Positions 3,701 to 28,984 of a stretch of 33,966 nucleotides of DNA are shown here, one piece after another. Source of the DNA: Ignavibacteria bacterium RBG_16_34_14 (lineage in GTDB: Bacteria > Bacteroidota > Ignavibacteria > Ignavibacteriales > Ignavibacteriaceae). Positions within the stretch are counted from its first letter, which is position 1; the number at the start of each line of letters is the position of its first letter. Position numbers and translations under genes: made by a program. A model generated the notes under the pieces. It saw only the letters and a program-made list of their open reading frames with translations. It was not told the DNA's origin and searched no databases. The stretch spans positions 1 to 33,966 of the forward strand of contig MHAF01000096.1 of NCBI GenBank assembly GCA_001802865.1. Reading direction: 5' to 3'.

Positions 3701-4789
3701 TCATTCAATAAGAGAGTTATAAATTTCTTCAAGTCTGCCGAAGTAATTATTACAATTACATTTCTTATTAACCTTTTTATAAAGATTATTACCAAGCTGT
3801 TCAGCAGCTTCTTTATTGTTTAGAAGAAAAAGAATTTTATCAGCAAGCTCATTTTCATTTTCAGGATTAACAAGCAAACCATCAAGACCATCTTCAATGA
3901 ATTCTGAGATACCTCCCGTGTTTCCTCCGATAAAAGGTTTTTTATTTGCCCCTGCTTCAATCATTACGAAAGGAAAACCATCAAACCTTGAAGGAAGAAT
4001 TACTATTTGAGCAATCTGGTACAGTATATTATTACCTTTTAAAGGAGGAATTATAATTATTGGAACAGTCAATTTAGTCCGTAATTTGGTAAAGCTTTTA
4101 TCTTCCACTTTCCCGCACATAATAAGAATTACATCTTTATCTTTATTGTAAACTATCTTATATGCCTGAATTAATTTATCATATCCTTTCTTATAATTTA
4201 TTTTCCCCATAAATAATAAAACTTTCTGATTGGGTTTTATGCATATTTCCCTTTTTATCTTTTCTTTTTCATCAGGTTTTAGTTCAGAGAATTCTTCAAT
4301 AGGATTATATAGAGTAATCAATTTATCTGTTTTAATATTAAAATTTTTTAATAGGTAAGAAGTAACTGAATTGCTTACAGAAATTATTTTATCCGATTTA
4401 AAGCTTATCTGCTTAAATCCATTAACAAAACTATGAGCAGATGTTATTGTCTTAAGGTTAAATTCTTTTGCAATTCTATTGGAAACAAATTCCGGAAATC
4501 TATGATGAGTGTGAATAAGGTTTATCTTGTTTTCAATTACATAATCTTTCAACGTTTTATAAAATCTATTATAAAAAAAAATATTTTTGATTCCGGTTGA
4601 AAAAGTTAATTTTTTAAATTTTAAAGAAGGAATTTCTTTTAATCTCTCTAATGAATCTCCTCCATTAGTTATAAAATGTGTTTCGTATTCATCTCTATTT
4701 CCAAAATATTTCAGGTAAAGAAAAACAAGCTTGCTTCTTCCACAACTGTAGTTGAAATCTGGAGTAATATGCAAAATCTTCTTTATCAT
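3701..4789 (-). CDS. GT4-type glycosyltransferase
   Basis: A 362-residue GT-B enzyme of the large GT4 group, which moves a sugar from a nucleotide donor to a growing glycan in the cytoplasm. The N-terminal Rossmann half has HITPDFNYSCGRSKL with the acceptor-side glycine/serine region, and IHTHHRFPEF. The C-terminal donor half has MGKINYKKGYDKLIQAY and the signature FDGFPFVMIEAGANKKP (EX7E region), followed by GGISEFIEDGLDGLLVNP. No membrane segment is seen. The donor and acceptor cannot be read from sequence. The gene is separated from two further GT4 genes by the IS110 insertion, and its stop codon abuts a MITE-like repeat. It was probably once transcribed with those neighbours. Confidence 0.88.
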   Translation of the reverse strand: MIKKILHITPDFNYSCGRSKLVFLYLKYFGNRDEYETHFITNGGDSLERLKEIPSLKFKKLTFSTGIKNIFFYNRFYKTLKDYVIENKINLIHTHHRFPEFVSNRIAKEFNLKTITSAHSFVNGFKQISFKSDKIISVSNSVTSYLLKNFNIKTDKLITLYNPIEEFSELKPDEKEKIKREICIKPNQKVLLFMGKINYKKGYDKLIQAYKIVYNKDKDVILIMCGKVEDKSFTKLRTKLTVPIIIIPPLKGNNILYQIAQIVILPSRFDGFPFVMIEAGANKKPFIGGNTGGISEFIEDGLDGLLVNPENENELADKILFLLNNKEAAEQLGNNLYKKVNKKCNCNNYFGRLEEIYNSLIE

Positions 4790-4989
4790 AGAAAGCTAAT
4801 AATTTCTTTCTTTAAACCGTTAAAACGGTTTCAACATTCGTTGAGTTAATGTATAATCCATGACTTAAGAGGTTGTGTGAATATTTCAAATTCGTCAGTC
4901 TGAACGGAGTCGAAGACTGACATTTCTAAACGAATTCACACTTCGACTTCGCTCCATTAGACTTATGCTGTAATTAATAATAATTTTAG

Positions 4990-5165
4990 AAAAACATTTA
5001 ATAACAAAATAATGTTAAAGTAAAATACCCAAAGAACCGATTAAGTCTATGACTCGCTCAAGAGATAATCTAAACACTGATGAAGACCCGGCTCTTTGGT
5101 GGTTAAAGCTAAATAATATTTCCGTGCAAAAAGATTAATAAAATGGAACAAGCTCATACCACTTG
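4990..5165 (+). ncRNA. Predicted IS110 bridge RNA
   Basis: The leader folds by eye into three parts. The first is a 5' stem-loop, AACATT (4993-4998) with AATGTT (5011-5016). The second is a target-binding hairpin closed by CCAAAGAACCG (5029-5039) and CGGCTCTTTGG (5089-5099). The third is a donor-binding hairpin closed by GTGGT/AGCT (5099-5110) and AGCT/ACCAC (5151-5162). In the first loop TCGCTCA (5054-5060) equals the left target side plus core, and ACACTGA (5074-5080) is complementary to TCAGTGT at 6226-6232. In the second loop TAATATT (5114-5120) equals the right end of the element at 6220-6226, and AATGGAA (5142-5148) is complementary to TTCCATT formed by joining 6225-6227 to 4955-4958. 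This is the guide layout known for bridge RNAs such as that of IS621. Transcript ends are estimates. Confidence 0.8.
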
Positions 5166-5185
5166 GGTGTTTTATAAAAAGAACA

Positions 5186-6211
5186 ATGCAAACAACAAAA
5201 TATTTCATCGGCTTTGATATATCGGCAGATGATTTTTCTGCCAGTTGCATTACCAGTCCGGATAATCCTGTTTTCTCAACACAAAAGTTTCTTAACAACT
5301 TTGATGGTTTTAATGAGTTTATTTCCCTTGTTTCTAAGCATAGCATAAAGCAATCAGAAGTAATCATTTGTATGGAAGCAACAGGGGTTTATTCTGAAAA
5401 TCTTTCCTACTTCCTGGCTTCTAAAGGATTTACTCTCTGTATTGAAGCTCCTCACAAAATAAAGAACAAAACAAAAGATTCACCCAGGAAGAATGATTTT
5501 ATTGATGCACTTTCAATTGCAGAGTATACTTACAGATACACTGATAAACTCACCTTCTGGAAACCAAAGGATGAGATTATAGAGCAAATTCAGGTACTTC
5601 TAAGTACTCGTGAGCATTTAACTTCCCAGATGACTGCAAATCAAAATGCTCTTAAAACTCTTAAGTACAAGTATTATCAAACTCCTTTGGCTAACCAGAT
5701 TTACGAGAAAACAATCAATAAGTTCAAAGAACACATCAAACAGATTGACCAGGAAATTAGTAACCTGATTGATAAAGACGATTCCTTTAAGAACAAAATC
5801 TCTTTGGCTAAGTCTGTTCCTGGTGTTGGTCTTTTGTTAGCTGCTAATCTTCTTGTGCTTACAAAAGGATTTACAGAACATCTTAACTACAAACACACAG
5901 CAGCTTATACAGGAATATGTCCTTATGAGCAAACAAGCGGAACATCGTTGCATAAACCTCCAAGATCAAAAAAATGTGGTCCGGCCAAGCTAAGAAAACT
6001 TCTTTATCTTGCTGCATTATCTGTAAGAACACATAATCAAAATTTTAAGAAATACTTCCTTCGCAAAGTAGCTGAAGGAAAAAATAAAAGACTAATACTA
6101 AATAACATTGAAAACAAATTACTTAAAATAATTTTTGCTGTTATTAATTCCGGAGTTGCTTATATAGAAAATTATAAATCAATTAATCCGGCTTTATTAA
6201 AAACAGCTTGA
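5186..6211 (+). CDS. IS110-family bridge-RNA-guided recombinase (transposase)
   Basis: A 341-residue DEDD transposase of usual family length. The N-terminal RuvC-like domain shows Asp11 (IGFDIS), Glu64 (CMEATG), Asp104 and Asp107 (RKNDFIDA). A helical linker follows at about 130-205. The C-terminal Transposase_20 domain has VPGVG at 211-215, AYTGICPYEQTSGTS at 240-254 with the candidate nucleophile serine (251 or 254), and KCGPAKLRKLLYLAA. IS110 enzymes excise as a circle and reinsert at a site chosen by a bridge RNA, using the DEDD site together with the serine. All key residues are present and the frame is intact, so the element may be active. The stop lies about 14 bases inside the right end. 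Confidence 0.95.
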   Translation: MQTTKYFIGFDISADDFSASCITSPDNPVFSTQKFLNNFDGFNEFISLVSKHSIKQSEVIICMEATGVYSENLSYFLASKGFTLCIEAPHKIKNKTKDSPRKNDFIDALSIAEYTYRYTDKLTFWKPKDEIIEQIQVLLSTREHLTSQMTANQNALKTLKYKYYQTPLANQIYEKTINKFKEHIKQIDQEISNLIDKDDSFKNKISLAKSVPGVGLLLAANLLVLTKGFTEHLNYKHTAAYTGICPYEQTSGTSLHKPPRSKKCGPAKLRKLLYLAALSVRTHNQNFKKYFLRKVAEGKNKRLILNNIENKLLKIIFAVINSGVAYIENYKSINPALLKTA

Positions 6212-6331
6212 TTATGTCATAATATTCAGTGTGACGGTAGAATTATTTTTCACACGGTCTCTTAAGTCATGGGCTATTTAAAAACACAGACTTGAAACTG
6301 TTTCAACAGTTTAAGTTATAATAATCTAAAG

Positions 6332-7468
6332 TTATTCAACTAAGAGACTCAAATAAACATTTTCAATTTGTTTAATGAAATTATTTACGTTGTATTTTTC
6401 TTCAATTGCTTTAATTCCGTTCATTCCCAGATTCTCTCTTAAAGAAATATCCGCAATAAGGTTTTGTAATTTCAATTCTGCTTCTTTAAGATTATCAGGG
6501 TTATAGATAAAACCGCAATTATTTACTTCAAGAATTTCTTTGAAGCCCCCAACATCCGGTGCAATAACAGGAACTTTATGTGCCATTGCTTCCCACATTG
6601 TTATCGGCATTCCCTCCCAATCGGAGGTGAACAAGACAACATCGAATAAATTATAATATTTATTTACTCCCTCAATGTACCCTAAAAAATCCATCTGCTT
6701 AATCAGGTATAATTTGTTTACAAGATTTTTTAGATCAATTTCCAACTTACCATCACCAAAAATCAAAAGATGAATTTTATAACCCCTAAGATTTATATTC
6801 TTAAAAATGTTTATTGCTTTATCAATTCGCTTGTCTATTTCTAATCGCCCAACAATTGCTATTATTATTTTCTCTTTCTTCAGTTTTTCAATGTAACTAT
6901 AGAGTTCAGAATTAATTTCAGTCAGAGTCTCATCATTACTATACCCGTTATAATAAACTACAGGCTCAGGGAATAGTTTTGTTTCTGCCAGAAGCAATTC
7001 CTTGCTTCTTTTCGAAGGGACAAGAACAACATCAACAGCTTTAAAGATATTAATAAGATAATGGATTGATCCATAAATTATTTTTTCAATCCATCCATAA
7101 TAATTATTCTTAAAAATGAAAAGACCGTGATAATTGAAAATGAATTTTCTTCTCAGAAAAATGTTTACCAATCCTGAAATTGCATAAGGCTTAATAAAAT
7201 GAGCATGGATTATTTGAATATCATTTTTTTTAATGAAGTTACAAATATCAATAAAGGCTTTAACGGAGATTTTCTTTTTTAATGATTGGCTTACAAATAC
7301 TTTTATTCCCATTTCAGAAAGTTCTTTCTCTATTTTCTTCCCTCCATGGAAGATAAGATAGTGTTGAAACTTTTTGTTATCTGAATTTCGAAATATCATC
7401 TTAAGGTGAGCATAAACCCCATCTGCTTTACCGGTAATATTGTTAGCAATATGGCAAACTTTAATCAT
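6332..7468 (-). CDS. GT4-type glycosyltransferase
   Basis: A 378-residue GT-B enzyme. The N-terminal half opens with HIANNITGKADGVYAHLKMIF and has IIHAHFIKPYAISG, typical of WcaJ-operon/WbaZ-like GT4 enzymes. The donor half has AIVGRLEIDKRIDKAINIF and the signature DWEGMPITMWEAMAHKVPVIAPDVGGFKE with the EX7E glutamates. It is soluble or peripheral, and likely adds one sugar during surface glycan assembly. Its start overlaps the stop of the upstream glycosyltransferase by four bases, so the two are translationally coupled. Downstream lies the repeat/IS110 block that cuts it off from the remaining glycosyltransferases. Donor and acceptor are unknown. Confidence 0.9.
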   Translation of the reverse strand: MIKVCHIANNITGKADGVYAHLKMIFRNSDNKKFQHYLIFHGGKKIEKELSEMGIKVFVSQSLKKKISVKAFIDICNFIKKNDIQIIHAHFIKPYAISGLVNIFLRRKFIFNYHGLFIFKNNYYGWIEKIIYGSIHYLINIFKAVDVVLVPSKRSKELLLAETKLFPEPVVYYNGYSNDETLTEINSELYSYIEKLKKEKIIIAIVGRLEIDKRIDKAINIFKNINLRGYKIHLLIFGDGKLEIDLKNLVNKLYLIKQMDFLGYIEGVNKYYNLFDVVLFTSDWEGMPITMWEAMAHKVPVIAPDVGGFKEILEVNNCGFIYNPDNLKEAELKLQNLIADISLRENLGMNGIKAIEEKYNVNNFIKQIENVYLSLLVE

Positions 7469-8565
7469 TCAACTGAGTTATATAATTGGATATACTGCTC
7501 GCTTACATTTTCCCAATTGAGTTTATCATAAATCTTCGAGGCATTTAATGAAATTTTACTCAAGTCATATTTCTCATTATAAATATCAATCAATAAATTT
7601 GCTAAACTTCCTTTCTCTGAACTATTAAAGATAAAACCGTTGAAATTATTTTCAACAAAATCCTTAATACCTGTATTTTCTGAAATGATAGGAATAATTC
7701 CCATTGCCATACATTCTGCCGTAAAAATTGAGAATGAATCAAAAGCAGAAGATTTGATTATGAAATGTTTTTCTGATAAAAATTCCAGTACAGATGCATG
7801 ATTCATTAGAGGGATGAAATGAATTTCAATATTTTTATTTGGGTTTTCTATTTTCTCTTCTCTACCAACTACAAAAATTGAGAACTGAAAACTTATAGTT
7901 TCCGGAATTTCTCTTAAAAGTTCTCTTAATCCTTTGTTGAAAGAATTAAAGTAAACAAAATTATAAATCTTTTTTTGTCCCATTTTAACCTCACCCTGCC
8001 CTCTCCTTAGTAAGGAGAGGGTTGAATATTTGTGAAAAGCTTCACTGATTCCGTTAGGAATTACTCTACAATTATCTTCAGACAGATTGTAATTCTTCCT
8101 GAACAAATTGAATAAAAGTTTTGAAGGGAAAATCAGACACTCAGATTTCTTTACAGATATTTTCTCAACCCATAAATCAAGGAAAGTCCTTTTTAGTTTT
8201 GAATTTTTTATTTCAGTCTTATTGAGTCCATGGAAGGTAGAGATAAATTTTAATCTTAATAAAGGTTTTAAGAAAAAAATTGCTAAAAAAAATCTCTGGC
8301 TGTTAACAAAATGAATAAGGTGGAATTGTTCTTTAAGAAGTTTTATGGCTAATGGAATAATCCCCAATCGTAAAACATTATCATCAGTTATCTTCTTGCC
8401 AAATATTTTATTAAATAAAGAATAATCTTTGTAACCGCTAAAAAAATATTCAATGAAAATTACATCAACTTTGTTTTTTAAATGCAGATAAAGTTCCCTT
8501 GCAACTCTCTCAGGACCGGAGAGAATATCATCTTCTCCGTATCTCCCAATTAAAGCTATTTTCAT
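7465..8565 (-). CDS. GT4-type glycosyltransferase with an in-frame palindromic repeat
   Basis: A 366-residue GT-B enzyme. N-terminal features are IALIGRYGEDDILSGPERVARELY and IHFVNSQ; the interdomain point is VIPNGISEAF. The donor half has FVYFNSFNKGLREL and FDSFSIFTAECMAMGIIPIISENTGIKDF, so the EX7E region is present but divergent. The stretch SLLRRGQGEVK (about residues 182-193), just after the interdomain point, is encoded by an inserted palindrome (7999-8021). The repeat keeps the frame and sits in a surface linker, so the protein may still work. It is coupled to the next glycosyltransferase by a four-base overlap. The sugar and acceptor cannot be told. Confidence 0.87.
   Translation of the reverse strand: MKIALIGRYGEDDILSGPERVARELYLHLKNKVDVIFIEYFFSGYKDYSLFNKIFGKKITDDNVLRLGIIPLAIKLLKEQFHLIHFVNSQRFFLAIFFLKPLLRLKFISTFHGLNKTEIKNSKLKRTFLDLWVEKISVKKSECLIFPSKLLFNLFRKNYNLSEDNCRVIPNGISEAFHKYSTLSLLRRGQGEVKMGQKKIYNFVYFNSFNKGLRELLREIPETISFQFSIFVVGREEKIENPNKNIEIHFIPLMNHASVLEFLSEKHFIIKSSAFDSFSIFTAECMAMGIIPIISENTGIKDFVENNFNGFIFNSSEKGSLANLLIDIYNEKYDLSKISLNASKIYDKLNWENVSEQYIQLYNSVE
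7988..8022. repeat. Palindromic repeat inside a coding region
   Basis: CCCTCTCCTTA (7999-8009) and TAAGGAGAGGG (8011-8021) are perfect inverted repeats around one base, preceded by CCTCACCCTG. The block is more GC-rich than the surrounding gene and codes for Arg/Gly/Leu-rich residues in a linker, as expected for a short interspersed palindrome that entered in frame. Confidence 0.65.
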
Positions 8566-19015: not shown

Positions 19016-20419
19016 ATGGAAAATATTTCTGGCTTAGTAAACTCGTTCTCTCAGTTCCTCTCTGAAAAAACATCTCAACGAAAAGAAAACCTGCAGGGAA
19101 TCTTATTAAGCTTTAGCAAAGAAATACACATTTTCGATTTTGAGAATAAAATTGATTCTTTACTTAAATCATCCGGAAATTCATTTTATTTTTCTTCTCC
19201 GGGAAATCAATTAACATTCATTGCTTTAGACCAGGCTTTTAATATTACTGAAAATGGACAGGCAAGATTTATTTCTACTGACAAAAAACTTAAAGAATTA
19301 GCCGGCAAAATTATTCAAAATCGGAGTGATAAAAATCTTCCTTTGTTTATTGGTGGGATGAAATTCACTGTTGAACATTCCGATGATGACTGGAAAGATT
19401 ATAATGATTCAACCTGGTTTGTACCTGAGATTTTAATATGCAAAGTCAAAGAAAAATCCTTTTTGATATATAATTATTATATCGAACAGGGTTTATCAAA
19501 AACAAGATTAGTTGAAAAATTTTCGAAGAAGTTGGAATCTTTGTTAAATATAACTGAGGATAGAAATAATTCATCACCCAGAATTATTAACTCTTCAGGA
19601 CTGTCCCCCAAGGATAAAAAGAAGTGGAAACAGATCATCAACCAGGCTCTTGAAAAGATTAATGAAGATGAGATAAAAAAAATTGTTCTTGCGAGAAAAG
19701 TTGAGCTTATTCTTTCTGGCGAGATTAATCTTACCAATTCTTTATACACTTTAAAAAGTGATTATCCTAATTGTTGTTTGTTTGCTTATCACAAAGGAAA
19801 TTCAACCTTCTTTGGAGCTACACCGGAATTGTTAGCCAGAATTTCAAACCATAAAATAGAAGTTGATGCAATTGCAGGTTCAGTTAGCCGCGGTGCAACA
19901 GATGATGAAGACCAAAAGTTAGAAACTGAACTTTTAAATAACAAAAAGGATCTGGAGGAACATAAATATGTTCGTGATCATCTTACTAATGCTTTAAATA
20001 ATTTTGGAAATAATATTAGCTTTAATAACACACCATCAGTCAAAAAACTTAAGAACATTCAGCATCTTTTAACAAAATTATCTGCCGATTTAAAAGATGA
20101 TACAAGCTTAATGAATATTCTCAGAGAGCTTCATCCTACTCCTGCCGTTTGTGGTTTCCCGAAAGATGCGGCGCTTAATCTCATTAAAAAAATTGAAAAC
20201 CAGAAAAGAGGTCTCTATTCCGGAATCATCGGTTGGTTCAATTTAAATAATGAAGGAGAGTTTGCTGTTTCTATAAGATCTGCTGTAACCCGCGGGAATA
20301 AACTTTCTGCATTTGCCGGCAATGGTATTGTTGAAGGTTCCGAACCTGATAATGAGTTTGAAGAAACGGAAATGAAATTAAAACCCATACTATCTCTCTT
20401 TAATGAAAAAAAAGATTAA
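19016..20419 (+). CDS. menF: Isochorismate synthase MenF
   Basis: 467 residues. It converts chorismate to isochorismate, the entry step of classical menaquinone synthesis. The chorismate-binding half (about 195-460) shows KKIVLARK with the general-base Lys, FGATPELLARI, AIAGSVSRGA, EEHKYVRDHL, LHPTPAVCGFPK, RGLYSGIIGWFN, SIRSAV and AGNGIVEGSEPDNEFEETEMK with the Mg-binding glutamates. The N-terminal half is the usual variable domain. Being followed by menD with a 17-base overlap argues for MenF over a salicylate or siderophore EntC. It begins the men operon. Confidence 0.95.
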   Translation: MENISGLVNSFSQFLSEKTSQRKENLQGILLSFSKEIHIFDFENKIDSLLKSSGNSFYFSSPGNQLTFIALDQAFNITENGQARFISTDKKLKELAGKIIQNRSDKNLPLFIGGMKFTVEHSDDDWKDYNDSTWFVPEILICKVKEKSFLIYNYYIEQGLSKTRLVEKFSKKLESLLNITEDRNNSSPRIINSSGLSPKDKKKWKQIINQALEKINEDEIKKIVLARKVELILSGEINLTNSLYTLKSDYPNCCLFAYHKGNSTFFGATPELLARISNHKIEVDAIAGSVSRGATDDEDQKLETELLNNKKDLEEHKYVRDHLTNALNNFGNNISFNNTPSVKKLKNIQHLLTKLSADLKDDTSLMNILRELHPTPAVCGFPKDAALNLIKKIENQKRGLYSGIIGWFNLNNEGEFAVSIRSAVTRGNKLSAFAGNGIVEGSEPDNEFEETEMKLKPILSLFNEKKD

Positions 20420-22181
20420 CAGGAATTTCTTTTGGGCTGAAACATTTATAAATGAATTAACTTCAATCGGTGTAAAATATGCTTGCATCTCTCCCGGTTC
20501 TCGTAATACTCCTTTAACTCTTGCAATAGCAGGAAATAAAAAAATAAAATCTTTTGTTCATATAGATGAAAGAAGCTCTGCTTTTTTTGCTCTTGGAGTT
20601 GCTAAAGCCACAAATACTCCTGTTGTTATTGTAAGCACCTCAGGTACTGCAACTGCGGAACTTTATCCTGCAATAATTGAAGCTTATCAGCAGAGAGTTC
20701 CATTAATTGTTTGTACAGCCGACAGACCTCCTGAGCTTTTAAATACAGGTGCAAATCAAACAATTAATCAAAACAATCTTTACAAAAATCATATAAGATG
20801 GTTTGTTGATGTTGGTTTACCAGAACTAATTCCCAGAAGAATAAGACACATAAAAGTAATTGCAAAAAGAGCTGTATATGAAAGTCTCATTCATTCAAAA
20901 GGTCCTGTTCATCTCAACTTCCCTTTTAGAAAACCGTTTGAACCAGATGACTATACAGATGAAATATATGAGGATATAATTAAAACTTCAGAGGTTGTCT
21001 TACCTGATAAGAAAAAACTCTTTGAGGAAGCTGAAAAAGATATTGTCTCAGAAAAATGGTTTAAAGAAGTGGCTGCTTATCTCTCAAAGTATAAAAAAGG
21101 ATTAATAATTGCAGGTCCCGAAAATTATAATAAACAATTTCATAAGAATTGCCAGAAGCTTGCTTATATTCTTGGCTATCCTGTTCTTGCAGACGGTGCT
21201 TCACAGCTTAGGTTTGGAAAACATAATAAAGATAATATCCTTTTTAGCTTTGAAGGATTCTTAAGATCTTTATTTGTTAATGGGAACTATAAACCTGAAA
21301 TAATTATTCAGTTTGGGAGAACTGTAACCTCAAAAGCATTGGAACTATATCTTGAAAAATGCACAGCTATAAGATTTATGATTAATGAATACGGCGACTG
21401 GTTTGATCCAGCAAACCGGTCGAATGCTTCATTTGCATGCAAGCCATTTCTCTTTTGCGAAAAGATGGTTGAACATTTTGGATCAAAAAAGATGAACAGG
21501 AATTTAGACTCCTGGCTTAAACTTTTTGAAGATGCTGATAAGTTATCTCTAAAAATAAAGAACAAAATTATAAGCAATTCTGAATTTCCTAATGAATGCA
21601 GAATTATAGAAGAGCTTGTAGATATTCTCCCAGAAAATTCTAATTTAATGATCTCCAACAGCATGCCGATAAGAGATTTTGATTACTTTGCTCCTGTTAC
21701 GCAAAAAGATATAACCGTATTTAACAACCGCGGTGCAAGTGGGATTGACGGGATTACCTCAACAGCGCTGGGTTTGGCGGTTGTGGAAAAGACTCCAACA
21801 ATTTTGTTAACAGGAGATTCTGCTTTTTATTATGATATGAATGGTCTGCTTGCTGCAAAAAAATATAAAATACCTTTAATCATTGTTCTGATAAACAATA
21901 ATGGAGGAGGGATTTTTGAAGTGCTTCCTGTTTCAAAATTTGGAAAAGTTTTTAAAGAATTTTTTGTAGCACCACACGATCTCGACTTTTCACCCTTTAC
22001 AAAAGCTTTTGAGGGATATTATTCGTTGATAAAAAGCTGGGGGAATTTCAGAACAGAATTCACTAAAGCATTAGAGAGAAAAGAATTTTCTGTATTAGAA
22101 ATTAAAACAAATGCTGCCGCTTCTCTTAAGCTAAGGCAGACTTACTGGAATGAAGTGAATAAATCACTGAATAAAATTTGA
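20403..22181 (+). CDS. menD: SEPHCHC synthase MenD
   Basis: 592 residues. A thiamine-diphosphate enzyme that joins isochorismate to the succinic semialdehyde unit made from 2-oxoglutarate. Signatures are CISPGSRNTPLTLAI, HIDERSSAFFALGVAKA with the ThDP-activating Glu, STSGTATAELYPAIIEA, TADRPPEL, and the cofactor-binding block GDSAFYYDMNGLL with IIVLINNNGGGIFEVLP. Its length is normal. The start overlaps menF by 17 bases, indicating translational coupling. A gap with an inverted repeat separates it from menH. Confidence 0.97.
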   Translation: MKKKINRNFFWAETFINELTSIGVKYACISPGSRNTPLTLAIAGNKKIKSFVHIDERSSAFFALGVAKATNTPVVIVSTSGTATAELYPAIIEAYQQRVPLIVCTADRPPELLNTGANQTINQNNLYKNHIRWFVDVGLPELIPRRIRHIKVIAKRAVYESLIHSKGPVHLNFPFRKPFEPDDYTDEIYEDIIKTSEVVLPDKKKLFEEAEKDIVSEKWFKEVAAYLSKYKKGLIIAGPENYNKQFHKNCQKLAYILGYPVLADGASQLRFGKHNKDNILFSFEGFLRSLFVNGNYKPEIIIQFGRTVTSKALELYLEKCTAIRFMINEYGDWFDPANRSNASFACKPFLFCEKMVEHFGSKKMNRNLDSWLKLFEDADKLSLKIKNKIISNSEFPNECRIIEELVDILPENSNLMISNSMPIRDFDYFAPVTQKDITVFNNRGASGIDGITSTALGLAVVEKTPTILLTGDSAFYYDMNGLLAAKKYKIPLIIVLINNNGGGIFEVLPVSKFGKVFKEFFVAPHDLDFSPFTKAFEGYYSLIKSWGNFRTEFTKALERKEFSVLEIKTNAAASLKLRQTYWNEVNKSLNKI

Positions 22182-22224
22182 TATTCGATTCAGCTATTCA
22201 GATAATATGGCAAGTTCACAAGTA

Positions 22225-22273
22225 AGTTCAAGTTCAAGATGAAATTACTTGAACTTGCTCTTGAACTTGAACT
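22225..22273. repeat. Inverted repeat between menD and menH
   Basis: AGTTCAAGTTCAAGA (22225-22239) and TCTTGAACTTGAACT (22259-22273) are perfect 15-base inverted repeats with a 19-base loop. The arms are built from repeated AAGTTC units, and further CAAGTT copies lie on both sides. No T-run follows, so it is unlikely to be a simple terminator; it may shape or protect the men message. Confidence 0.7.
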
Positions 22274-22294
22274 CAAACTTGTTTAGGAAGTATT

Positions 22295-23116
22295 ATGATT
22301 TTCGAACTTGCAGGCTTAAAATTCAACATTGAGTTTTTTCATACAGTTGAAAACAATAAACCATATCTCCTCTTTCTTCATGGTTTTACAGGTTCATCTG
22401 ATGATTGGAAATCTATTGTTCCGCACGTTAACCAAAATTTTTCTTCCTTTGGAATAGATTTAATAGGACATGGTAAAAGCAGTTCACCCGACAATATTGA
22501 ATTCTACTCAGCCAATGCAATAGCAAACCAGATAAGCAGCATAATTGGACATACAATAAAAAGAAAAGTTATTCCTGTTGGTTATTCGATGGGAGGAAGA
22601 GCAGCGTTGAGTTTTACGATTAAATATCCTGAAATGGTTGAAGCACTAATTCTTGAAAGCACTGCTCCTGGAATTGAAGATGAGAAGGTGAGAGAAGAGC
22701 GGATTAAGAAGGATGAAGAGCTTGCATCTTTTATTGAAACTAACTCACTTGACAAGTTTGCTGATTTCTGGATGGATCTGGAATTGTTCAACACTCAAAG
22801 AAGATTTTCTGAGGAAAAGAGAAAACAGTTTAAGCTTGGAAGAATGAAAAACAATCCAACGGGGCTTGCAAACTCTTTACGCGGATTTGGAACGGGGATG
22901 ATGCCTCCTCTTTTTAAGCAATTAAAAGATATTAAATGTAAAACTCTGCTTATAACCGGTGAGCTTGATACAAAATTCTCTATTATAAACCAAGAAGTTG
23001 TTAAGTTATTCCCAAATGCTGAACATAAGACTGTTAAGAATGCCGGGCATAATACCCACCTTGAAGAACCGAAAGCCTTTATTGAGGCTATAAATAGCTT
23101 TCTTGATTCATTATAA
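22295..23116 (+). CDS. menH: SHCHC synthase MenH (alpha/beta hydrolase)
   Basis: 273 residues. It removes pyruvate from SEPHCHC to give SHCHC. It has the alpha/beta-hydrolase frame: oxyanion segment LFLHGFTGSSDDW, GIDLIGHGKS, nucleophile elbow VGYSMGGRAAL, acid region LLITGELDTKFS and the His in NAGHNTHLEEP. Alone these would only say hydrolase; the position directly after menD and before menB/A/C/E makes MenH by far the best reading. Confidence 0.9.
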   Translation: MIFELAGLKFNIEFFHTVENNKPYLLFLHGFTGSSDDWKSIVPHVNQNFSSFGIDLIGHGKSSSPDNIEFYSANAIANQISSIIGHTIKRKVIPVGYSMGGRAALSFTIKYPEMVEALILESTAPGIEDEKVREERIKKDEELASFIETNSLDKFADFWMDLELFNTQRRFSEEKRKQFKLGRMKNNPTGLANSLRGFGTGMMPPLFKQLKDIKCKTLLITGELDTKFSIINQEVVKLFPNAEHKTVKNAGHNTHLEEPKAFIEAINSFLDSL

Positions 23117-23210
23117 CATTTCCTTACATCAATTAACTTTTGTATAAGAAGATTTTTATTATTTTAAATCTTAGTATATAACAAGACAATTTTTCGACGA
23201 TATTAAGTTT

Positions 23211-24488
23211 ATGGAATTCCTGATAATATTATTGCTTGTAATTCTTAATGGAATTTTTGCTATGGCAGAGATTGCGCTTGTCTCTTCCAGGAAAGTACGC
23301 CTTGAGGAGAAAGCAAACAGTGGAAGTAAAGGAGCAAAAACTGCTCTTCTCCTTTTGCAAAAACCTGAAGAGTTTTTATCTACAGTTCAAGTCGGAATTA
23401 CATTAATCGGCATTATAGCAGGTGCTTATGGTGGAGTAGCCTGGGCAAATGATATATCTCCATTCTTTGAACAATTCAATGCTTTAAAGGAGTATGCGGT
23501 TGAAATTTCTTATGTAATTGTTATAGGATTAATAACATATCTCTCTTTAATAATCGGGGAGCTAGTTCCCAAAACGATGGCATATAATAATCCTGAAGGA
23601 ATATCAATAGCTTTAGCCCCTGTTATGCTGGTTCTTTCAAGAGTTACAACTCCGGTAATAAGGTTTTTAAGCTTTTCAACTAAAATTATTGTGAGCATTT
23701 TCAGAATTAAACTGAAGAAGGAACCTCCTGTTACTGAGGAAGAATTAAAAATATTAATTGAACAGGGAAGCCAGCATGGAACTTTTGAAAAGAAAGAAAC
23801 CGAAATGATAAAAAGTATTTTCCGTTTCGGTGACAGGAAAGCTTATTCTATTATGATTAACAGGCAGGATATAGTCTGGATTGATATAAATGATTCGCCC
23901 GAGGAAATAAGAGAAGCTGTATATAACAGCAACTATTCCAGGCTGCCTTTAGGTGATGGTTCTTTGGATCAGTTAGTTGGAATTATTAAGGTAAAAGATT
24001 TTTTTCGTCATTTTGAAAAAGGAAAGGAATTAAATTTAAAAGATATTGCAATTCAACCATTGTATATCCCGGAGAATTTACCTGCCGTAAAAATTCTTGA
24101 ACGTTTCCGTGAAACTAAAATTCATATTGCAATAGTAATTGATGAATACGGCTCAACTGAGGGAATGATTACCTTGCATGATCTTATTGAAAACATTTTC
24201 GGAGAACTGCCTGATAGATATGAAAAATATGAAACACCCATTTTTGAAAGAGAAGATGGTTCACTTCTTATAGATGGAAGTATGCTGATTGATGAATTGA
24301 AAGATATATTAAGAATGCAGTTTGAACAACCCGAGGAATACTCAACTTTAGGTGGTTATGTTATGTACAAATTAAATAAGATTCCATCGGAAGGTGATAA
24401 GTTTACCTCTTGCGATTATCAATTCGAAGTTGTTGATATGGATGGTAAAAGAGTTGATAAGGTTCTTGTTCAGAAGAATACGAAATAG
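23211..24488 (+). CDS. CNNM/CorC-HlyC family membrane protein with CBS domains
   Basis: 425 residues. DUF21 (CNNM) membrane domain at about 1-190 with four hydrophobic segments, starting MEFLIILLLVILNGIFAMAEIALVSSRK and containing QVGITLIGIIAGAYGG and GELVPKTMAY. A CBS pair is at about 205-330 (SIMINRQDIVWIDI; IAIVIDEYGSTEGMITLHDLIENIFGE), and a CorC_HlyC domain covers the C-terminus to about 420. Members are linked to magnesium or other divalent-cation transport; the old name hemolysin is historical. It sits between menH and menB, 94 and 102 bases from them, without an obvious role in quinone synthesis. Nothing in it looks broken. Confidence 0.92.
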   Translation: MEFLIILLLVILNGIFAMAEIALVSSRKVRLEEKANSGSKGAKTALLLLQKPEEFLSTVQVGITLIGIIAGAYGGVAWANDISPFFEQFNALKEYAVEISYVIVIGLITYLSLIIGELVPKTMAYNNPEGISIALAPVMLVLSRVTTPVIRFLSFSTKIIVSIFRIKLKKEPPVTEEELKILIEQGSQHGTFEKKETEMIKSIFRFGDRKAYSIMINRQDIVWIDINDSPEEIREAVYNSNYSRLPLGDGSLDQLVGIIKVKDFFRHFEKGKELNLKDIAIQPLYIPENLPAVKILERFRETKIHIAIVIDEYGSTEGMITLHDLIENIFGELPDRYEKYETPIFEREDGSLLIDGSMLIDELKDILRMQFEQPEEYSTLGGYVMYKLNKIPSEGDKFTSCDYQFEVVDMDGKRVDKVLVQKNTK

Positions 24489-24590
24489 AGAGCTTTATTC
24501 TCCTAGTTAAGTGAAGAACTCAAAATAGTTTTCATTCCTATCTTTCCCTATTTTTCAATATTTTTACTTCGCAATTATCAAGGAATTAGA

Positions 24591-25436
24591 ATGAGTTTTA
24601 CCTGGAAAAAAGTAAAATCCGCCTCAGGCGGATATACCGACATCATCTATGAAAAAATGGATGGAATAGCCAAAATAACCATACACAGACCTGAGGTAAG
24701 AAACGCTTTCCGCCCTGAGACTGTAACTGAAATGTATGATGCATTTTCAGATGCACGAATGGATGAAAAAATAGGTGTAATTCTTTTAACAGGTTACGGT
24801 CCTGCTAAAGATGGCACGTATGCTTTCTGTTCAGGAGGCGATCAAAGGATAAGAGGAGATAAAGGCTATAAATCAAAAGAAGGTGTGCAGAGTTTAAATG
24901 TTCTCGATCTTCAGAAATTAATAAGAAGCATACCCAAACCGGTTATTGCTCTTGTAGCGGGTTACGCAATCGGCGGAGGGCACGTTCTCCACGTTGTTTG
25001 CGATTTAACTATTGCAGCAGATAATGCAATCTTCGGGCAGACAGGTCCTAAAGTCGGCAGCTTTGACGGCGGTTTTGGTACAAGCTATCTCGCAAGAATT
25101 GTTGGACAGAAAAAAGCACGTGAGATCTGGTATCTCTGTAAACAATACAATGCCCGGGAAGCTCTGAAAATGGGTTTGGTAAATAAAGTCGTTCCTGTAG
25201 AAAAGCTTGAAGAAGAAGGAGTTGAATGGGCAAAACAAATTTTACAGCACAGCCCAATGGCAATTCGTGTCCTTAAATCTGCATTCAACGCTGAGCTTGA
25301 TGGGCAAGCTGGAATTCAGGAGCTTGCAGGCAATGCAACTCTTTTATATTATATGAGTGAGGAAGCTCAGGAAGGAAAGAAAGCGTATCTGGAAAAACGT
25401 AAACCTGATTTTAAGAAATTTCCCAAGCTGCCGTGA
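24591..25436 (+). CDS. menB: 1,4-dihydroxy-2-naphthoyl-CoA synthase MenB
   Basis: 281 residues of the crotonase fold. It closes the second ring of o-succinylbenzoyl-CoA to DHNA-CoA. MenB signatures are [57 protein letters not shown] and [17 protein letters not shown]. The oxyanion glycines and the conserved Asp and Tyr regions are all present. Downstream, a cluster of palindromes separates it from menA. Confidence 0.97.
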
Positions 25437-25439
25437 AAG

Positions 25440-25575
25440 TAGCCACGACTTTTAAGTCGTGGAATAAATGAATAACCAAAACTAATTGGGGCTTCAGCCC
25501 CCGATTAAGATGTTATCTGTGGCTAAAGTCTTTTTTTTTTTATACAATCTCCACGAGCTAAAGATCGTGGCTATT
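25440..25575. repeat. Cluster of palindromic repeats between menB and menA
   Basis: It contains CCACGACTTTTAAGTCGTGG (25443-25462, perfect palindrome), GGGGCTTCAGCCCC (25488-25501) and CCACGAGCTAAAGATCGTGG (25551-25570). TAGCCACGA at the left edge and TCGTGGCTA at the right edge are also inverted, so the whole block can close on itself. A run of 11 T follows GGCTAAAGTC near 25530. It is the same repeat type as the broken palindrome at 4858/6272. Confidence 0.7.
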
Positions 25576-25617
25576 TAGTTATGATTTTTATATACTTTTA
25601 GTACTTTTTTACTTTTT

Positions 25618-26493
25618 ATGAACAAATTTCAAAGCTGGCTTCTCGCAAGCCGGCCAAAAACTCTGCTTGCTTCCGTTGTACCTGTTATGGTTGGAACTGC
25701 TTTGGCAGTAAACTCAGGTGAATTTAATTTGCTTGTTTCATTTGTTGCTTTGGTGTGCTCACTACTTATCCAAATCGGAACAAATTTTACAAATGATCTT
25801 TATGATTTCTTAAAAGGTGCAGACACAACTTCCCGCAAAGGTCCTGTGCGTGTTCTATCAAACAGATTAATTACAGTAAAAGAAATGAAGATTGGAATTA
25901 TTATCACTTTCTCTTCTGCTTTTATTCTTGGGCTTTATCTTGTTTATGTTGGTGGAATAATAATTCTTCTAATCGGTATTCTTTCAATAATTGCAGGACT
26001 TGCATACACTGCCGGTCCATATCCCTTAGCTTACAAAGGTCTTGGCGATATTTTTGTTTTTATGTTCTTTGGTTTGATTGGAACCCTCGGAACATACTAC
26101 CTCCATACAAAGGAGTTATCATTACCTGCTGTTTTATCATCAATTCCTGTCGGAGCTTTAATCACTAATATTCTTGTTGTAAATAATTACCGCGATATTA
26201 AAGAAGACAGACATGCAGGAAAAAATACGCTGGCAGTTAAGCTTGGGAAACCATTTACACAATATCAATTTATATTTTTAATTACTTTTTCTTTCTTAAC
26301 ACCATTGTTATTATTTCTTTTTTTTGACTTCAAAATATGGATATTCCTGCCTTACCTTACTCTCCCTGCTGCTTATAATATTACTAAGATGATTTTCAGG
26401 CTTGATGGAATCCAGTTAAATAAAACTCTTGAACTCACTGCCAGACTATCTGCTTTGTATGGCATTTTATTTTCAGCCGGTTTAATTTTATGA
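25618..26493 (+). CDS. menA: 1,4-dihydroxy-2-naphthoate polyprenyltransferase MenA
   Basis: 291 residues, UbiA-type integral membrane protein with about eight or nine hydrophobic helices. It attaches the polyprenyl tail to DHNA. It has the two Asp-rich sites for Mg-pyrophosphate: TNFTNDLYDFLKGAD and NNYRDIKEDRHAGK. It starts RPKTLLASVVPVMVGTALA, typical of MenA. Its stop overlaps menC by four bases. Confidence 0.95.
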   Translation: MNKFQSWLLASRPKTLLASVVPVMVGTALAVNSGEFNLLVSFVALVCSLLIQIGTNFTNDLYDFLKGADTTSRKGPVRVLSNRLITVKEMKIGIIITFSSAFILGLYLVYVGGIIILLIGILSIIAGLAYTAGPYPLAYKGLGDIFVFMFFGLIGTLGTYYLHTKELSLPAVLSSIPVGALITNILVVNNYRDIKEDRHAGKNTLAVKLGKPFTQYQFIFLITFSFLTPLLLFLFFDFKIWIFLPYLTLPAAYNITKMIFRLDGIQLNKTLELTARLSALYGILFSAGLIL

Positions 26494-27524
26494 ACAAGCT
26501 TGAACTAACCTACACCCCTTACTCGTTAAAGCTAAAAAAAACTTTACAGACATCAAGAACAACAATAACGGAAAGAAAAGGATTCATACTAAAATTAAAA
26601 AGCCAAACCAGTGCAGTTGGAATTGGTGAAGCTGCTCCTCTTCCGGATTTTGGTTCTGAGAGTTATGAGGAAGATGAAAAAGTTCTGGAAAATTTTAAAC
26701 TAAATTTGAGAGTTGATATTGAGAATCTAAATGAAAGTTTAGAGGAAAATTTAAATGATTATAATTCATTTCCTTCATTAAGATGCGGATTTGAGCTTGC
26801 CATTCTTAATTTAATTTGCAATGAAAGAAAAACCACAATTCCTGCTTTGCTAAGAAGGAATTATCCTGATTCTATTTTAATAAATGGCGTAATAGGTTTT
26901 ACTTCTTTAGAAAGAGTTGAAGAAACGACATCCGATCTTATACAAAAGGGATTTACAACAATAAAAGTAAAAATGGGCAGAGATGATTTTGAAGAAGATC
27001 TTAAGACAATAAAAAAAATCAGAGAAACAGTTGGGTATAACCTTAAACTTAGAATAGATGCAAATGCAAAATGGAATAAAGATGAAGCATTGGAATATCT
27101 TAAAAGAATTGAGTCATTTGATATTCAATATGCTGAGCAACCTGTAAAAGATTTAACTGATTTTCTTTTTCTCAAAGAGAAAATAAATATTCCCTTAGCA
27201 GCAGATGAATCAATCAGGTCATTCAAAGATGCGGAGGAATTTGTTTCAAAAAAAGCTGCTTCATTTTTAATCCTTAAACCGATGATGCTTGGGGGGATAA
27301 TTCCAACATTAAATATTGCTGATCTTGCAAAAGAAAATGGAATTCAAACTGTTGTCACCTCATCCTTTGAAACTGTTATTGGCAGAACTGGTGTTGTTAA
27401 TACTGCCGCTTTTATTAATAATAATCTTGCTCATGGTTTAGGGACAGCAGATTATTTAGATGAAGCAGAAATTGCCAATCCATTTCCTGTTTCAAGTGGA
27501 AAAATAGTATTTCATTCAAGATGA
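26490..27524 (+). CDS. menC: o-Succinylbenzoate synthase MenC
   Basis: 344 residues of the enolase superfamily. It dehydrates SHCHC to o-succinylbenzoate. Capping N-terminal domain about 1-120; barrel with KVKMG (catalytic Lys pair KxK), RIDANAKWN, YAEQPV and ADES as Mg ligands, and LKPMMLGG with the second acid/base Lys. Related dipeptide epimerases share the fold, but the men context and overlaps of four bases with menA and menE settle the call. Confidence 0.94.
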   Translation: MNKLELTYTPYSLKLKKTLQTSRTTITERKGFILKLKSQTSAVGIGEAAPLPDFGSESYEEDEKVLENFKLNLRVDIENLNESLEENLNDYNSFPSLRCGFELAILNLICNERKTTIPALLRRNYPDSILINGVIGFTSLERVEETTSDLIQKGFTTIKVKMGRDDFEEDLKTIKKIRETVGYNLKLRIDANAKWNKDEALEYLKRIESFDIQYAEQPVKDLTDFLFLKEKINIPLAADESIRSFKDAEEFVSKKAASFLILKPMMLGGIIPTLNIADLAKENGIQTVVTSSFETVIGRTGVVNTAAFINNNLAHGLGTADYLDEAEIANPFPVSSGKIVFHSR

Positions 27525-28984
27525 ATATTTTAGATTTCATCAGACCAACCGAGAATAAAGTTAATCCCGATTCAGTTGCAGTCATTCAGAACGATAAAGA
27601 AATAACTTATAATGAAATTAATTCTTCAGTTGAGAAAACTTCTTTCTTCTTAAAGAATGTAGGCATAAAAGAAAATGATATTATCACTTTATTATCAAAT
27701 AATAGTTTGGAGTTTATTGTAACTGTTCTTTCTCTCTGGGAAATTGGGGCTGTACCTGTACCTCTTAATGTAAAGTTTCTTAAAAAAAACTTAGATGAAC
27801 AAATAGAATTTCTGAACTCAGGTTGTACTATTAAAAGTAAAGAGTTCTTGAATTTTTCAGCTCCCGGAAAAAATCTTTTTATTCCTTTTGATGACTTACT
27901 TCGCAAGGCGATTTTACCTGGGAACAAAGAAAAAAAAGGTCAAAGAAATTTTTCAAATCTGCTTTCCCGACAAACAGAAGAAAAAACAGCCCTAATACTT
28001 TTCACTTCAGGCTCATCAGGAAAACCTAAAGCTGTCATGTTAAGCTTTGAAAACCTTATTCAAAACGCATTAACAGGAAATAAAGTTTTAAATCAAACCA
28101 AAGAAGATAAATGGTTAGCATCTCTTCCCTTTTATCATATAGGAGGTTTCTCAATTATTTTTCGGGCTTTGATGTTTGGAGCTTCAATTGTAATTCCCAC
28201 TTCACTTTCAAATGATGATTTGCTGGGATCAATAAAAAAACACCAGCCAACTTTAGCTTCTTTGGTTTCAAATCAATTAAAGAAATTTGTTAAAGAGAAT
28301 TTTATTCCCAACATAGAATTAAGAACAGTTTTACTCGGCGGTGGATTTTCTGATAAAGATTTAATTCTTAAAGCCATTAAAAAAGGATGGAAGATTGCAA
28401 AAGTTTATGGTTCAACAGAGACATCTTCCTTTATTTCATTTATGAATTATGAAGAAATGAAAAAGAAACCTCAAGCATCGGGAAGAGTTATTTCTCCAAA
28501 TAAAATTAAAATAACTGATACAGGAGAAATTGCGGTTCAAAGTCAATCTGTAATGCAAGGCTATTTTAATAATAAAGAAGGAACTGAAGAGAAAATAAAA
28601 AATGGTTTTTATTATACCGGAGATTCTGGGCATCTTGATAATGAAGGCTATTTATACGTTGAAGCTAAAAGAACTGATCTAATAATTTCAGGTGGAGAAA
28701 ATATAAATCCCTTTGAAGTTGAAAATGAAATCTCATCTCATTCAAAAGTAAAAGAAGTATCTGTCGTTGGAATTGAAGATAAAGAATGGGGGCAAATTGT
28801 TTCTGCCGCTGTTGTACTAAAAGAGAATAAAAAACTTACAGAAAATGAACTGAAAAATTTTTTAAGAAATAAACTAGCTTCTTTTAAGATTCCTAAGCAA
28901 ATAGTATTTATTAACGATTTACCCAAAACAGAACTTGGAAAAATTTTCAGGGAAGAGGTAAAAAAATTATTCAACAAAGAATAG
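27521..28984 (+). CDS. menE: o-Succinylbenzoate-CoA ligase MenE
   Basis: 487 residues of the ANL adenylating family. It activates o-succinylbenzoate with ATP and CoA. Motifs are ALILFTSGSSGKPKAVMLSF (phosphate loop), KVYGSTETSSFIS, FYYTGDSGHLD, KRTDLIISGGENINPFEVENEI and the C-terminal Lys in LPKTELGKIFREE. It starts inside the end of menC (four bases). It is the last gene of the cluster. Confidence 0.95.
   Translation: MNILDFIRPTENKVNPDSVAVIQNDKEITYNEINSSVEKTSFFLKNVGIKENDIITLLSNNSLEFIVTVLSLWEIGAVPVPLNVKFLKKNLDEQIEFLNSGCTIKSKEFLNFSAPGKNLFIPFDDLLRKAILPGNKEKKGQRNFSNLLSRQTEEKTALILFTSGSSGKPKAVMLSFENLIQNALTGNKVLNQTKEDKWLASLPFYHIGGFSIIFRALMFGASIVIPTSLSNDDLLGSIKKHQPTLASLVSNQLKKFVKENFIPNIELRTVLLGGGFSDKDLILKAIKKGWKIAKVYGSTETSSFISFMNYEEMKKKPQASGRVISPNKIKITDTGEIAVQSQSVMQGYFNNKEGTEEKIKNGFYYTGDSGHLDNEGYLYVEAKRTDLIISGGENINPFEVENEISSHSKVKEVSVVGIEDKEWGQIVSAAVVLKENKKLTENELKNFLRNKLASFKIPKQIVFINDLPKTELGKIFREEVKKLFNKE

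What the first reader, a model, noticed from the sequence alone, without database searches (positions are those of the whole stretch)
4955..6232. IS110 element with a readable bridge RNA whose four guides match its own ends and its target
Seen directly: the leader holds two long hairpins. In loop one TCGCTCA (5054-5060) equals the left target side plus core (4949-4954 then A6228), and ACACTGA (5074-5080) is complementary to TCAGTGT (6226-6232). In loop two TAATATT (5114-5120) equals the element's right end (6220-6226), and AATGGAA (5142-5148) is complementary to TTCCATT formed only when the right end joins the left end. Four independent 7-base matches in the right order and strand sense are hard to explain by chance. 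Known: bridge RNAs of IS110 recombinases (IS621) have a 5' stem-loop, target loop and donor loop, with left and right guides meeting at the core. Inferred: this is an intact guided recombinase system from an uncharacterised lineage, with core TC where IS621 uses CT.
Basis: partly seen in the sequence, partly recalled or inferred. Interest (0 to 1): 0.92.

Follow-up and report, generated by a model that had tools for sequence, protein, structure and literature searches.

The report
IS110 element with bridge RNA
This is a small jumping gene that carries its own guide RNA, which pairs both with the element's ends and with the repeated DNA it jumps into; it is a new, well-supported member of a mechanism already published in 2024, not a new mechanism.

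Summary
In detail: all four guide matches are at the stated coordinates. The element is a 1,273-bp IS110-group insertion sequence (4955-6227; core TC at 4953-4954 and 6226-6227) with a 341-aa recombinase carrying the catalytic residues of IS621. An empty copy of its site in the same genome shows clean insertion. Relatives at 34-88% identity test the guide idea. At one fixed place in the fold, the 7-nt right target guide matches each element's own right flank at 52 of 55 non-core letters in 12 elements; the next register reaches 32 of 55. Over eight guide types 36 of 38 letters match, which only 1 of 40,320 permutations reaches. The left target guide peaks at its expected register, more weakly. 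Donor guides change with element ends, but rest on few changes and do not beat their controls in a scan. The leader folds as two guide loops closed by an outer stem. This is a bridge-RNA element aimed at palindromic repeats of Ignavibacteria-related bacteria. What is new is the lineage; its TC core and closing stem differ from IS621. Activity is inferred, not shown.

The parts
4949..4954 (+). left target TCGC plus core TC (core 4953-4954)
   Evidence: equals leader 5054-5059; empty copy of the site in the same genome
4955..5185 (+). left non-coding end (LE), encodes the bridge RNA; begins CATTAGAC
   Evidence: first 11 letters identical in the 8 leaders aligned
4960..4962 (+). LE half of a 3-bp sub-terminal inverted repeat (GAC, with GTC at 6216-6218)
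   Evidence: both halves differ together in L102
5022..5030 (+). 5' arm of the outer closing stem, AAAATACCC
   Evidence: folds; equivalents in relatives
5031..5039 (+). 5' arm of the basal target stem (partner 5089-5097, one A-C mismatch)
5045..5048 (+). GTCT of the target-loop stem (partner AGAC 5084-5087)
   Evidence: AAGTCTA ... AGAC present in all 13 leaders, down to 34% protein identity
5054..5059 (+). left target guide TCGCTC (A5060 also matches here)
   Evidence: expected register is the top of a scan over registers
5074..5080 (+). right target guide ACACTGA
   Evidence: covaries with right flanks: 52 of 55 letters over 12 elements; 1 of 40,320 permutations
5113..5120 (+). left donor guide ATAATATT
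   Evidence: equals RE 6219-6226; L045 has ATAGTATT in both places; scan not above control
5142..5147 (+). right donor guide AATGGA
   Evidence: complement of TCCATT at the RE-LE junction; AATAGA where LE is TATTAG; scan not above control
5165..5173 (+). 3' arm of the outer closing stem, GGGTGTTTT
5186..6211 (+). IS110-group recombinase, 341 aa (DEDD RuvC-like plus Transposase_20); D11, E64, D104, D107, S251
6212..6227 (+). right end (RE), with core TC at 6226-6227
   Evidence: conserved in close relatives
6228..6232 (+). right target AGTGT
   Evidence: complement of the right target guide

Best explanation
It is an IS110-group insertion sequence guided by a bridge RNA. Inferred cycle, by analogy with IS621: the element leaves as a circle joining RE to LE; the joint may restore a promoter; a leader RNA of about 150-200 nt is made and binds the recombinase. 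Its first loop pairs with the bottom strand left of the core and the top strand right of the core in a chromosomal palindromic repeat, reading TCGCTC-AGTGT around a TC core. Its second loop pairs in the same way with the RE-LE joint. The DEDD/serine enzyme then exchanges strands at TC and leaves no other duplication. Shown here: anatomy, clean insertion, covariation of target guides with flanks, conserved RNA topology in most lineages folded. Suggested: donor guides changing with the ends. Not shown: circle, transcript, RNA binding, recombination.
For: Recombinase family and catalytic residues. Empty paralogous site at 92.8% over 125 bp running through the joint. Four exact copies of the 20-nt target repeat elsewhere in the genome, with 0 matches of the reversed-pattern control. 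Right target guide: 52 of 55 non-core letters in 12 elements at one fixed register, next best 32 of 55, mean 0.29; 36 of 38 for eight guide types, 1 of 40,320 permutations; wrong-strand control at most 20 of 33 against 32 of 33 for seven types. Left target guide: expected register on top, 37 of 72 for 12 elements and 22 of 36 for six types, next 16 of 36; wrong-strand control at most 17 of 36; hand-placed guides 25 of 36, reached by 10 of 720 permutations; L103 carries CACCGGTC in guide and flank. Donor: L045 has ATAGTATT in guide and RE; AATGGA with LE CATT in 5 elements, AATAGA with LE TATT in 2, of 7 examined. Outer stem with two branches is the minimum-energy shape in five lineages.
Against: Only one close copy in the window's own genome, so movement there is not seen directly. 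In L045 the topology is not the minimum-energy fold, z -1.74; the L103 fold is not unusual against shuffles, z -1.08. The register scan does not separate the donor guides from their wrong-strand controls: LDG 38 of 56 against 35 of 56 (at the proposed place), RDG 22 of 35 against 20 of 35 (and its best register is not the proposed place, whose distance varies). L006, L008, L102 and the G534 pairing each have one mismatch in the right target guide. Right ends whose leader is absent, cut off or on another contig were left out of the counts; by my reading several fit the guides known from their genome less well: two IGN3 remnants 2 of 5 letters; two G628 ends 3 or 4 of 5 depending on the guide; five further G534 flanks, four at 4 of 5 and one at 3 of 5; three G679 ends at 4, 4 and 3 of 5. 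The repeat is common in the own genome and IGN3 but the pattern gave only 4, 0 and 1 matches in the three other host genomes, controls 1, 1 and 0. The junction promoter is weak evidence: equal scores also occur off the joint.
Confidence: 0.94

Rival explanations
1. The recombinase itself recognises the repeat, and the leader RNA is only regulatory (a folded 5' UTR or attenuator). The matches reflect shared ancestry of element and site.
For: Most close relatives sit in similar repeats, so some matching is inherited; left-guide matches are partial.
Against: Guides and flanks change together across eight guide types with the expected strand and register; L103 and L102 have different targets, matched by their leaders.
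Confidence: 0.04
2. It is a decayed, immobile copy whose bridge RNA once worked.
For: Single close copy in its genome; in IGN3 three of four copies have a broken frame.
Against: Open frame with the catalytic residues, ends like those of relatives, matching guides and a folded leader in the window copy.
Confidence: 0.2
3. The four 7-base matches are chance in an AT-rich leader.
For: The two donor 7-mers occur in 7-9% of shuffled leaders.
Against: No shuffle of 20,000 holds more than two of the four; the relatives' covariation.
Confidence: 0.005

Closest known systems
IS621 bridge recombinase (IS110 group; PDB 8WT6-8WT9; PMC11208160, PMC11208158)
   Same: DEDD plus Tnp serine enzyme; guide RNA in the left end before the gene; target loop first, donor loop second; left guides read as the top strand, right guides complementary to it; guides overlap at a dinucleotide core; targets palindromic repeats; short sub-terminal inverted repeat.
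   Different: Core TC rather than CT; right target guide 7 nt rather than the 4 of wild-type IS621 (longer ones are reported for other IS110 orthologues); [quoted passage not shown] no clear 5' stem-loop seen here; distant protein (E 2e-28).
ISCro4 transposase (PDB 9T56)
   Same: Best match among Protein Data Bank sequences, E 3.1e-31 over residues 3-327.
   Different: Distant in sequence; its guide RNA was not compared.
IS1111 group with seekRNA (PMC11187229, passages)
   Same: Same enzyme family and RNA-guided targeting.
   Different: There the RNA is usually encoded after the gene and the order of target matches is reversed; here it lies before the gene.
TIGR-Tas (NCBIfam NF052498; PMC12045711, search listing only)
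   Same: Weak C-terminal similarity, 23.2 bits against a cut-off of 100.
   Different: Below the cut-off; tandem guide arrays were not looked for; not filed as a member.

Membership tests
IS110 family recombinase | PF01548 DEDD domain and PF02371 domain | tested here: met
   89.2 and 60 bits, both above the gathering cut-offs; NF033542 182.7 bits against 140
IS110 family recombinase | catalytic D, E, D, D and serine | tested here: met
   D11, E64, D104, D107, S251 align with the IS621 residues D11, E60, D102, D105, S241 named in PMC11208158 (I took the chain numbering of the alignment as shifted by two)
IS110 group (not IS1111) | long LE carrying the RNA, short RE | tested here: met
   LE 231 nt, RE 16 nt
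IS110 group (not IS1111) | short 2-3 bp sub-terminal inverted repeat flanking the donor | tested here: met
   GTC/GAC in the window, ACC/GGT in L102; feature described in PMC11208160
bridge RNA system | two internal loops matching target and donor, order LTG-RTG-LDG-RDG | tested here: met
bridge RNA system | target guides covary with insertion sites | tested here: met
   strong for the right guide, weaker for the left
bridge RNA system | donor guides covary with element ends | tested here: inconclusive
   co-changes seen in L045, L102 and L103, but the scan is not clearly above its control
bridge RNA system | scarless insertion at a short shared core | tested here: met
   empty site L121; core TC
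bridge RNA system | promoter restored across RE-LE in the circle | tested here: inconclusive
   TTGACT-17-TAGACT (9 of 12) spans the joint in 5 of 8 elements scanned, not among the best of the window; similar scores occur off the joint
bridge RNA system | RNA expressed, bound by the recombinase, sufficient for recombination | not testable with these tools
   needs an experiment
IS621 and near orthologues | CT core | tested here: not met
   TC in the flanks and ends of the 13 elements, where present

The most novel reading that the evidence does not exclude
A separate IS110 clade of Ignavibacteria-related bacteria uses a strict TC core, instead of the (C)T core of IS621, with a bridge RNA built as a closed three-way junction. 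Its enzyme would then read the core differently from IS621. The clade shows natural retargeting of one enzyme type across the arms of a repeat family, and to unrelated sites in more distant members.
Probability: 0.4. Interest if true: 0.5.

Novelty: new member of a known kind. Interest (0 to 1): 0.38.

Why it matters
Bridge RNAs are programmable tools for DNA insertion, excision and inversion. A clade with another core and an RNA whose two loops are held together by one stem would widen the set of usable sites and give a compact RNA to test. The series of relatives is also a natural experiment: one enzyme type, eight right target guides, each with a largely matching site of its own.

Tried and rejected
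Rfam: no family reached its gathering score in the window. Viral contigs: 7 pattern stretches, none a relative. Plasmids: 1,335 records with relatives below 60% identity, first row 31.8%; not pursued. Protein search of 395 genomes drawn from the phylum at E 1e-60: only the own genome. PADLOC: no match at E 0.01. Right ends without a usable leader (IGN3 L053, L061; G628 L052, L068; G615 L055, L063, L070; G534 L110, L112, L114, L119; G679 L113, L115, L117) were not used in the counts; of the G534 flanks only that of L118, the copy with its own left end in the same locus, was used. L043 and L050 at first looked like leader-only elements; they stop at contig ends. L044 and L088 (G604) are remnants and were not counted. 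RNAalifold gave little covariation because most relatives are close: 1 of 41 pairs with both sides changed, 4 of 39. A shift of register making the core (C)T, as in IS621, was considered: the joints allow a cut after the T, but the base before it differs between target and donor, while TC is shared, so TC is preferred. The class searches scored only 2 or 5 candidates per genome, so copies may be missed. No covariance model was built and no structure was predicted.

Full report
What is there. Window 4955-6227 is a complete IS110-group insertion sequence. Its longest open frame (5186-6211, 341 aa) matches PF01548 and PF02371 above their cut-offs and NCBIfam NF033542, 'IS110 family RNA-guided transposase'. 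The only matches at E 0.001 among Protein Data Bank sequences are ISCro4 and IS621. The IS621 catalytic residues D11, E60, D102, D105 and S241 (PMC11208158, passages seen) align with D11, E64, D104, D107 and S251, taking the chain numbering in the alignment as shifted by two. The gene is preceded by a 231-nt non-coding left end and followed by a 16-nt right end, the layout of the IS110 group rather than IS1111 (PMC11208160, section seen).

The host. The window's genome is an incomplete draft (78.6% complete, 174 contigs). It is placed in the same family as a genome (G661) whose matches have the same coordinates as those of the Ignavibacteriota isolate IGN3; I infer that they are the same from the coordinates. 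Only one close copy is in the own genome.

The insertion. Joining the two flanks gives ...CACTTCGACTTCGCTC-AGTGTGACG..., which aligns through the joint to another place in the same genome (locus L121, 92.8% over 125 bp). So the element entered cleanly, with only the dinucleotide TC present on both sides. The target is a palindromic repeat. A 20-nt form with up to 3 mismatches has 19 matches in the own genome (4 exact; 2 of the 19 lie in the window) and 77 in IGN3, against 0 and 1 for the reversed pattern; in the three other host genomes searched it has 4, 0 and 1, controls 1, 1 and 0, so those hosts have other forms or few copies. IS621 also targets palindromic repeats (PMC11208160).

All four are present. 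In 20,000 shuffled leaders the single matches occur in 0.16%, 1.3%, 8.8% and 7.4%, and never more than two together. The two donor matches alone would not be convincing.

The relatives. One scan of the genome collection gave seven close relatives (81-88% identity). A leader search of 391 genomes of the class gave 10 genomes with a match at E 1e-5, the own included and some of them short and probably spurious. A protein search of the same class gave 8 of 391 genomes at E 1e-45, the own included, reaching 51% (L045/L101), 41% (L102) and 34% (L103) identity. The 13 leaders compared all have AAGTCTA ... AGAC around the target loop, which fixes the place of the guides independently of the flanks. 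One search lists further loci, found by that motif itself, so it is no test of the motif; many of them are the same copies fetched again.

Target guides. At 3 nt before AGAC, the reverse complement of the 7-mer matches the right flank at 52 of 55 non-core letters over 12 elements; the next best register reaches 32 of 55 and the mean is 0.29. L003 contributes only 2 letters and L045 only 3, because their contigs end. With one element per guide type it is 32 of 33 for seven types; the wrong-strand control reaches at most 20 of 33. With an eighth type, pairing the guide of L103 with the flank of another copy in the same genome, it is 36 of 38, and 1 of 40,320 permutations reaches that; within the six close types it is 28 of 28, 1 of 720. 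The guides are ACACTGA, AGTCTGA, ACATTGA, ATTCTGA, ACGTTGA, ACCCTGA, CGCCCGA and AGTGCGA. The left target guide is clearest in a distant relative: L103 has CACCGGTC in both places. Over six types the expected register is the best of the scan, 22 of 36 against 16 of 36, with a wrong-strand control of 17 of 36. Hand-placed, the guides match at 25 of 36, which 10 of 720 permutations also reach. So the left side is supported but tolerates mismatches.

Donor guides. L045 has ATAGTATT both in the donor loop and at its right end, where the close relatives have ATAATATT. Of 7 elements examined, the 5 whose left end begins CATTAG hold AATGGA in the donor loop and the 2 that begin TATTAG hold AATAGA. 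The sub-terminal triplets change together, GTC/GTC to ACC/ACC. These are few changes. In the register scan the left donor guide is best at its proposed place, 38 of 56, but its wrong-strand control reaches 35 of 56; the right donor guide is not picked out, its best register (22 of 35, control 20 of 35) being elsewhere, since its distance from the anchor varies. This part is consistent rather than proven.

Fold. In the window the leader folds as an outer stem (5022-5030 with 5165-5173) around two stem-loops that hold the guides (z -3.16 for 5020-5175, -2.26 for the whole leader). Outer stem and two branches are also the minimum-energy shape of L006, L042, L102 and L103, with z of -2.58, -4.67, -3.19 and -1.08; in L006 the inner GTCT/AGAC stem is not formed. 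In L045 the stems exist (ACACCGA with TCGGTGT, CAAAGACTG with CAGTCTTTG), but the free fold prefers another shape. The basal target stem holds AAAGAACCG/CGGTTCTTT in L042, CAAAGACTG/CAGTCTTTG in L045, GACAAACCG/CGGTTTGTT in L102 and CGCAGGAAGCG/CGCTTTCTGTG in L103: changed sequence, kept pairing.

Core. TC is the dinucleotide shared by target and donor, it is present in the flanks and ends of the 13 elements as far as they are known, and the left and right target guides overlap there. In IS621 the core is CT, with the T nearly invariant (PMC11208158). Because a cut just after the T is also compatible with the joints, whether the enzyme contacts the same T as IS621 is open; the base before T differs between target and donor here, which argues for TC.

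Against the reading. L006, L008, L102 and the G534 pairing each have one mismatch in the right target guide. Right ends without a usable leader were left out; counted by eye on the five non-core letters against guides known from their genome, the two IGN3 remnants have 2 of 5, two G628 ends 3 or 4, the other five G534 flanks 4, 4, 4, 4 and 3, and three G679 ends 4, 4 and 3. Three of four IGN3 copies have a broken frame. A promoter across the circle joint (TTGACT-17-TAGACT, 9 of 12) is seen in 5 of 8 elements, not among the best in the window, and similar scores occur off the joint.

Known or new. The mechanism is that of Durrant et al. and Hiraizumi et al. 2024 (PMC11208160: abstract, sections 5, 6, 7, 12, figure legends and passages seen; PMC11208158: passages seen) and of Siddiquee et al. 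2024 (PMC11187229: passages seen). The first predicts a bridge RNA in 85.7% of catalogued IS110s and reports right target guides longer than that of IS621. A library search for 'Ignavibacteri' with 'IS110' listed one paper, on transferred genes, seen in the listing only. Cores and folds of other published elements are in figures I could not see, so I do not claim that TC or the closing stem is unprecedented. Verdict: a new member of a known kind, unusually well supported from sequence alone.

Noticed in passing
window 4842-4881 and 6249-6288: Imperfect 40-nt inverted repeat (75%) around the target repeat; with the palindromes inside it looks like a MITE-like composite repeat, and the inner part recurs at L121.
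   Followed up: partly
L007, L008, L009 (IGN3): Three of four element copies have a frame break at the same stretch of the recombinase gene; L008 is also split by an insertion of about 1.4 kb.
   Followed up: partly
L119 1-70 (minus strand): Two right-end termini of the L103-type element 49 bp apart, as if one element had used the end of another.
   Followed up: no
window 4958-4965 and 5042-5049: The left terminus TAGACTTA is complementary to the target-stem segment TAAGTCTA; not kept in L102 and L103.
   Followed up: no
L004 (Ignavibacterium HOT.MB2.1): Guide AGTCTGA aims at a TCAGACTGAC site, the sequence of the sister arm of the same repeat family seen: a natural retargeting.
   Followed up: partly
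window 19016-28984: By recall of the gene families, a run of menaquinone biosynthesis genes (isochorismate synthase to CoA ligase), with other genes between; not searched.
   Followed up: no
window 3701-8565: Glycosyltransferase-like genes on the minus strand on both sides of the element (by recall, not searched).
   Followed up: no
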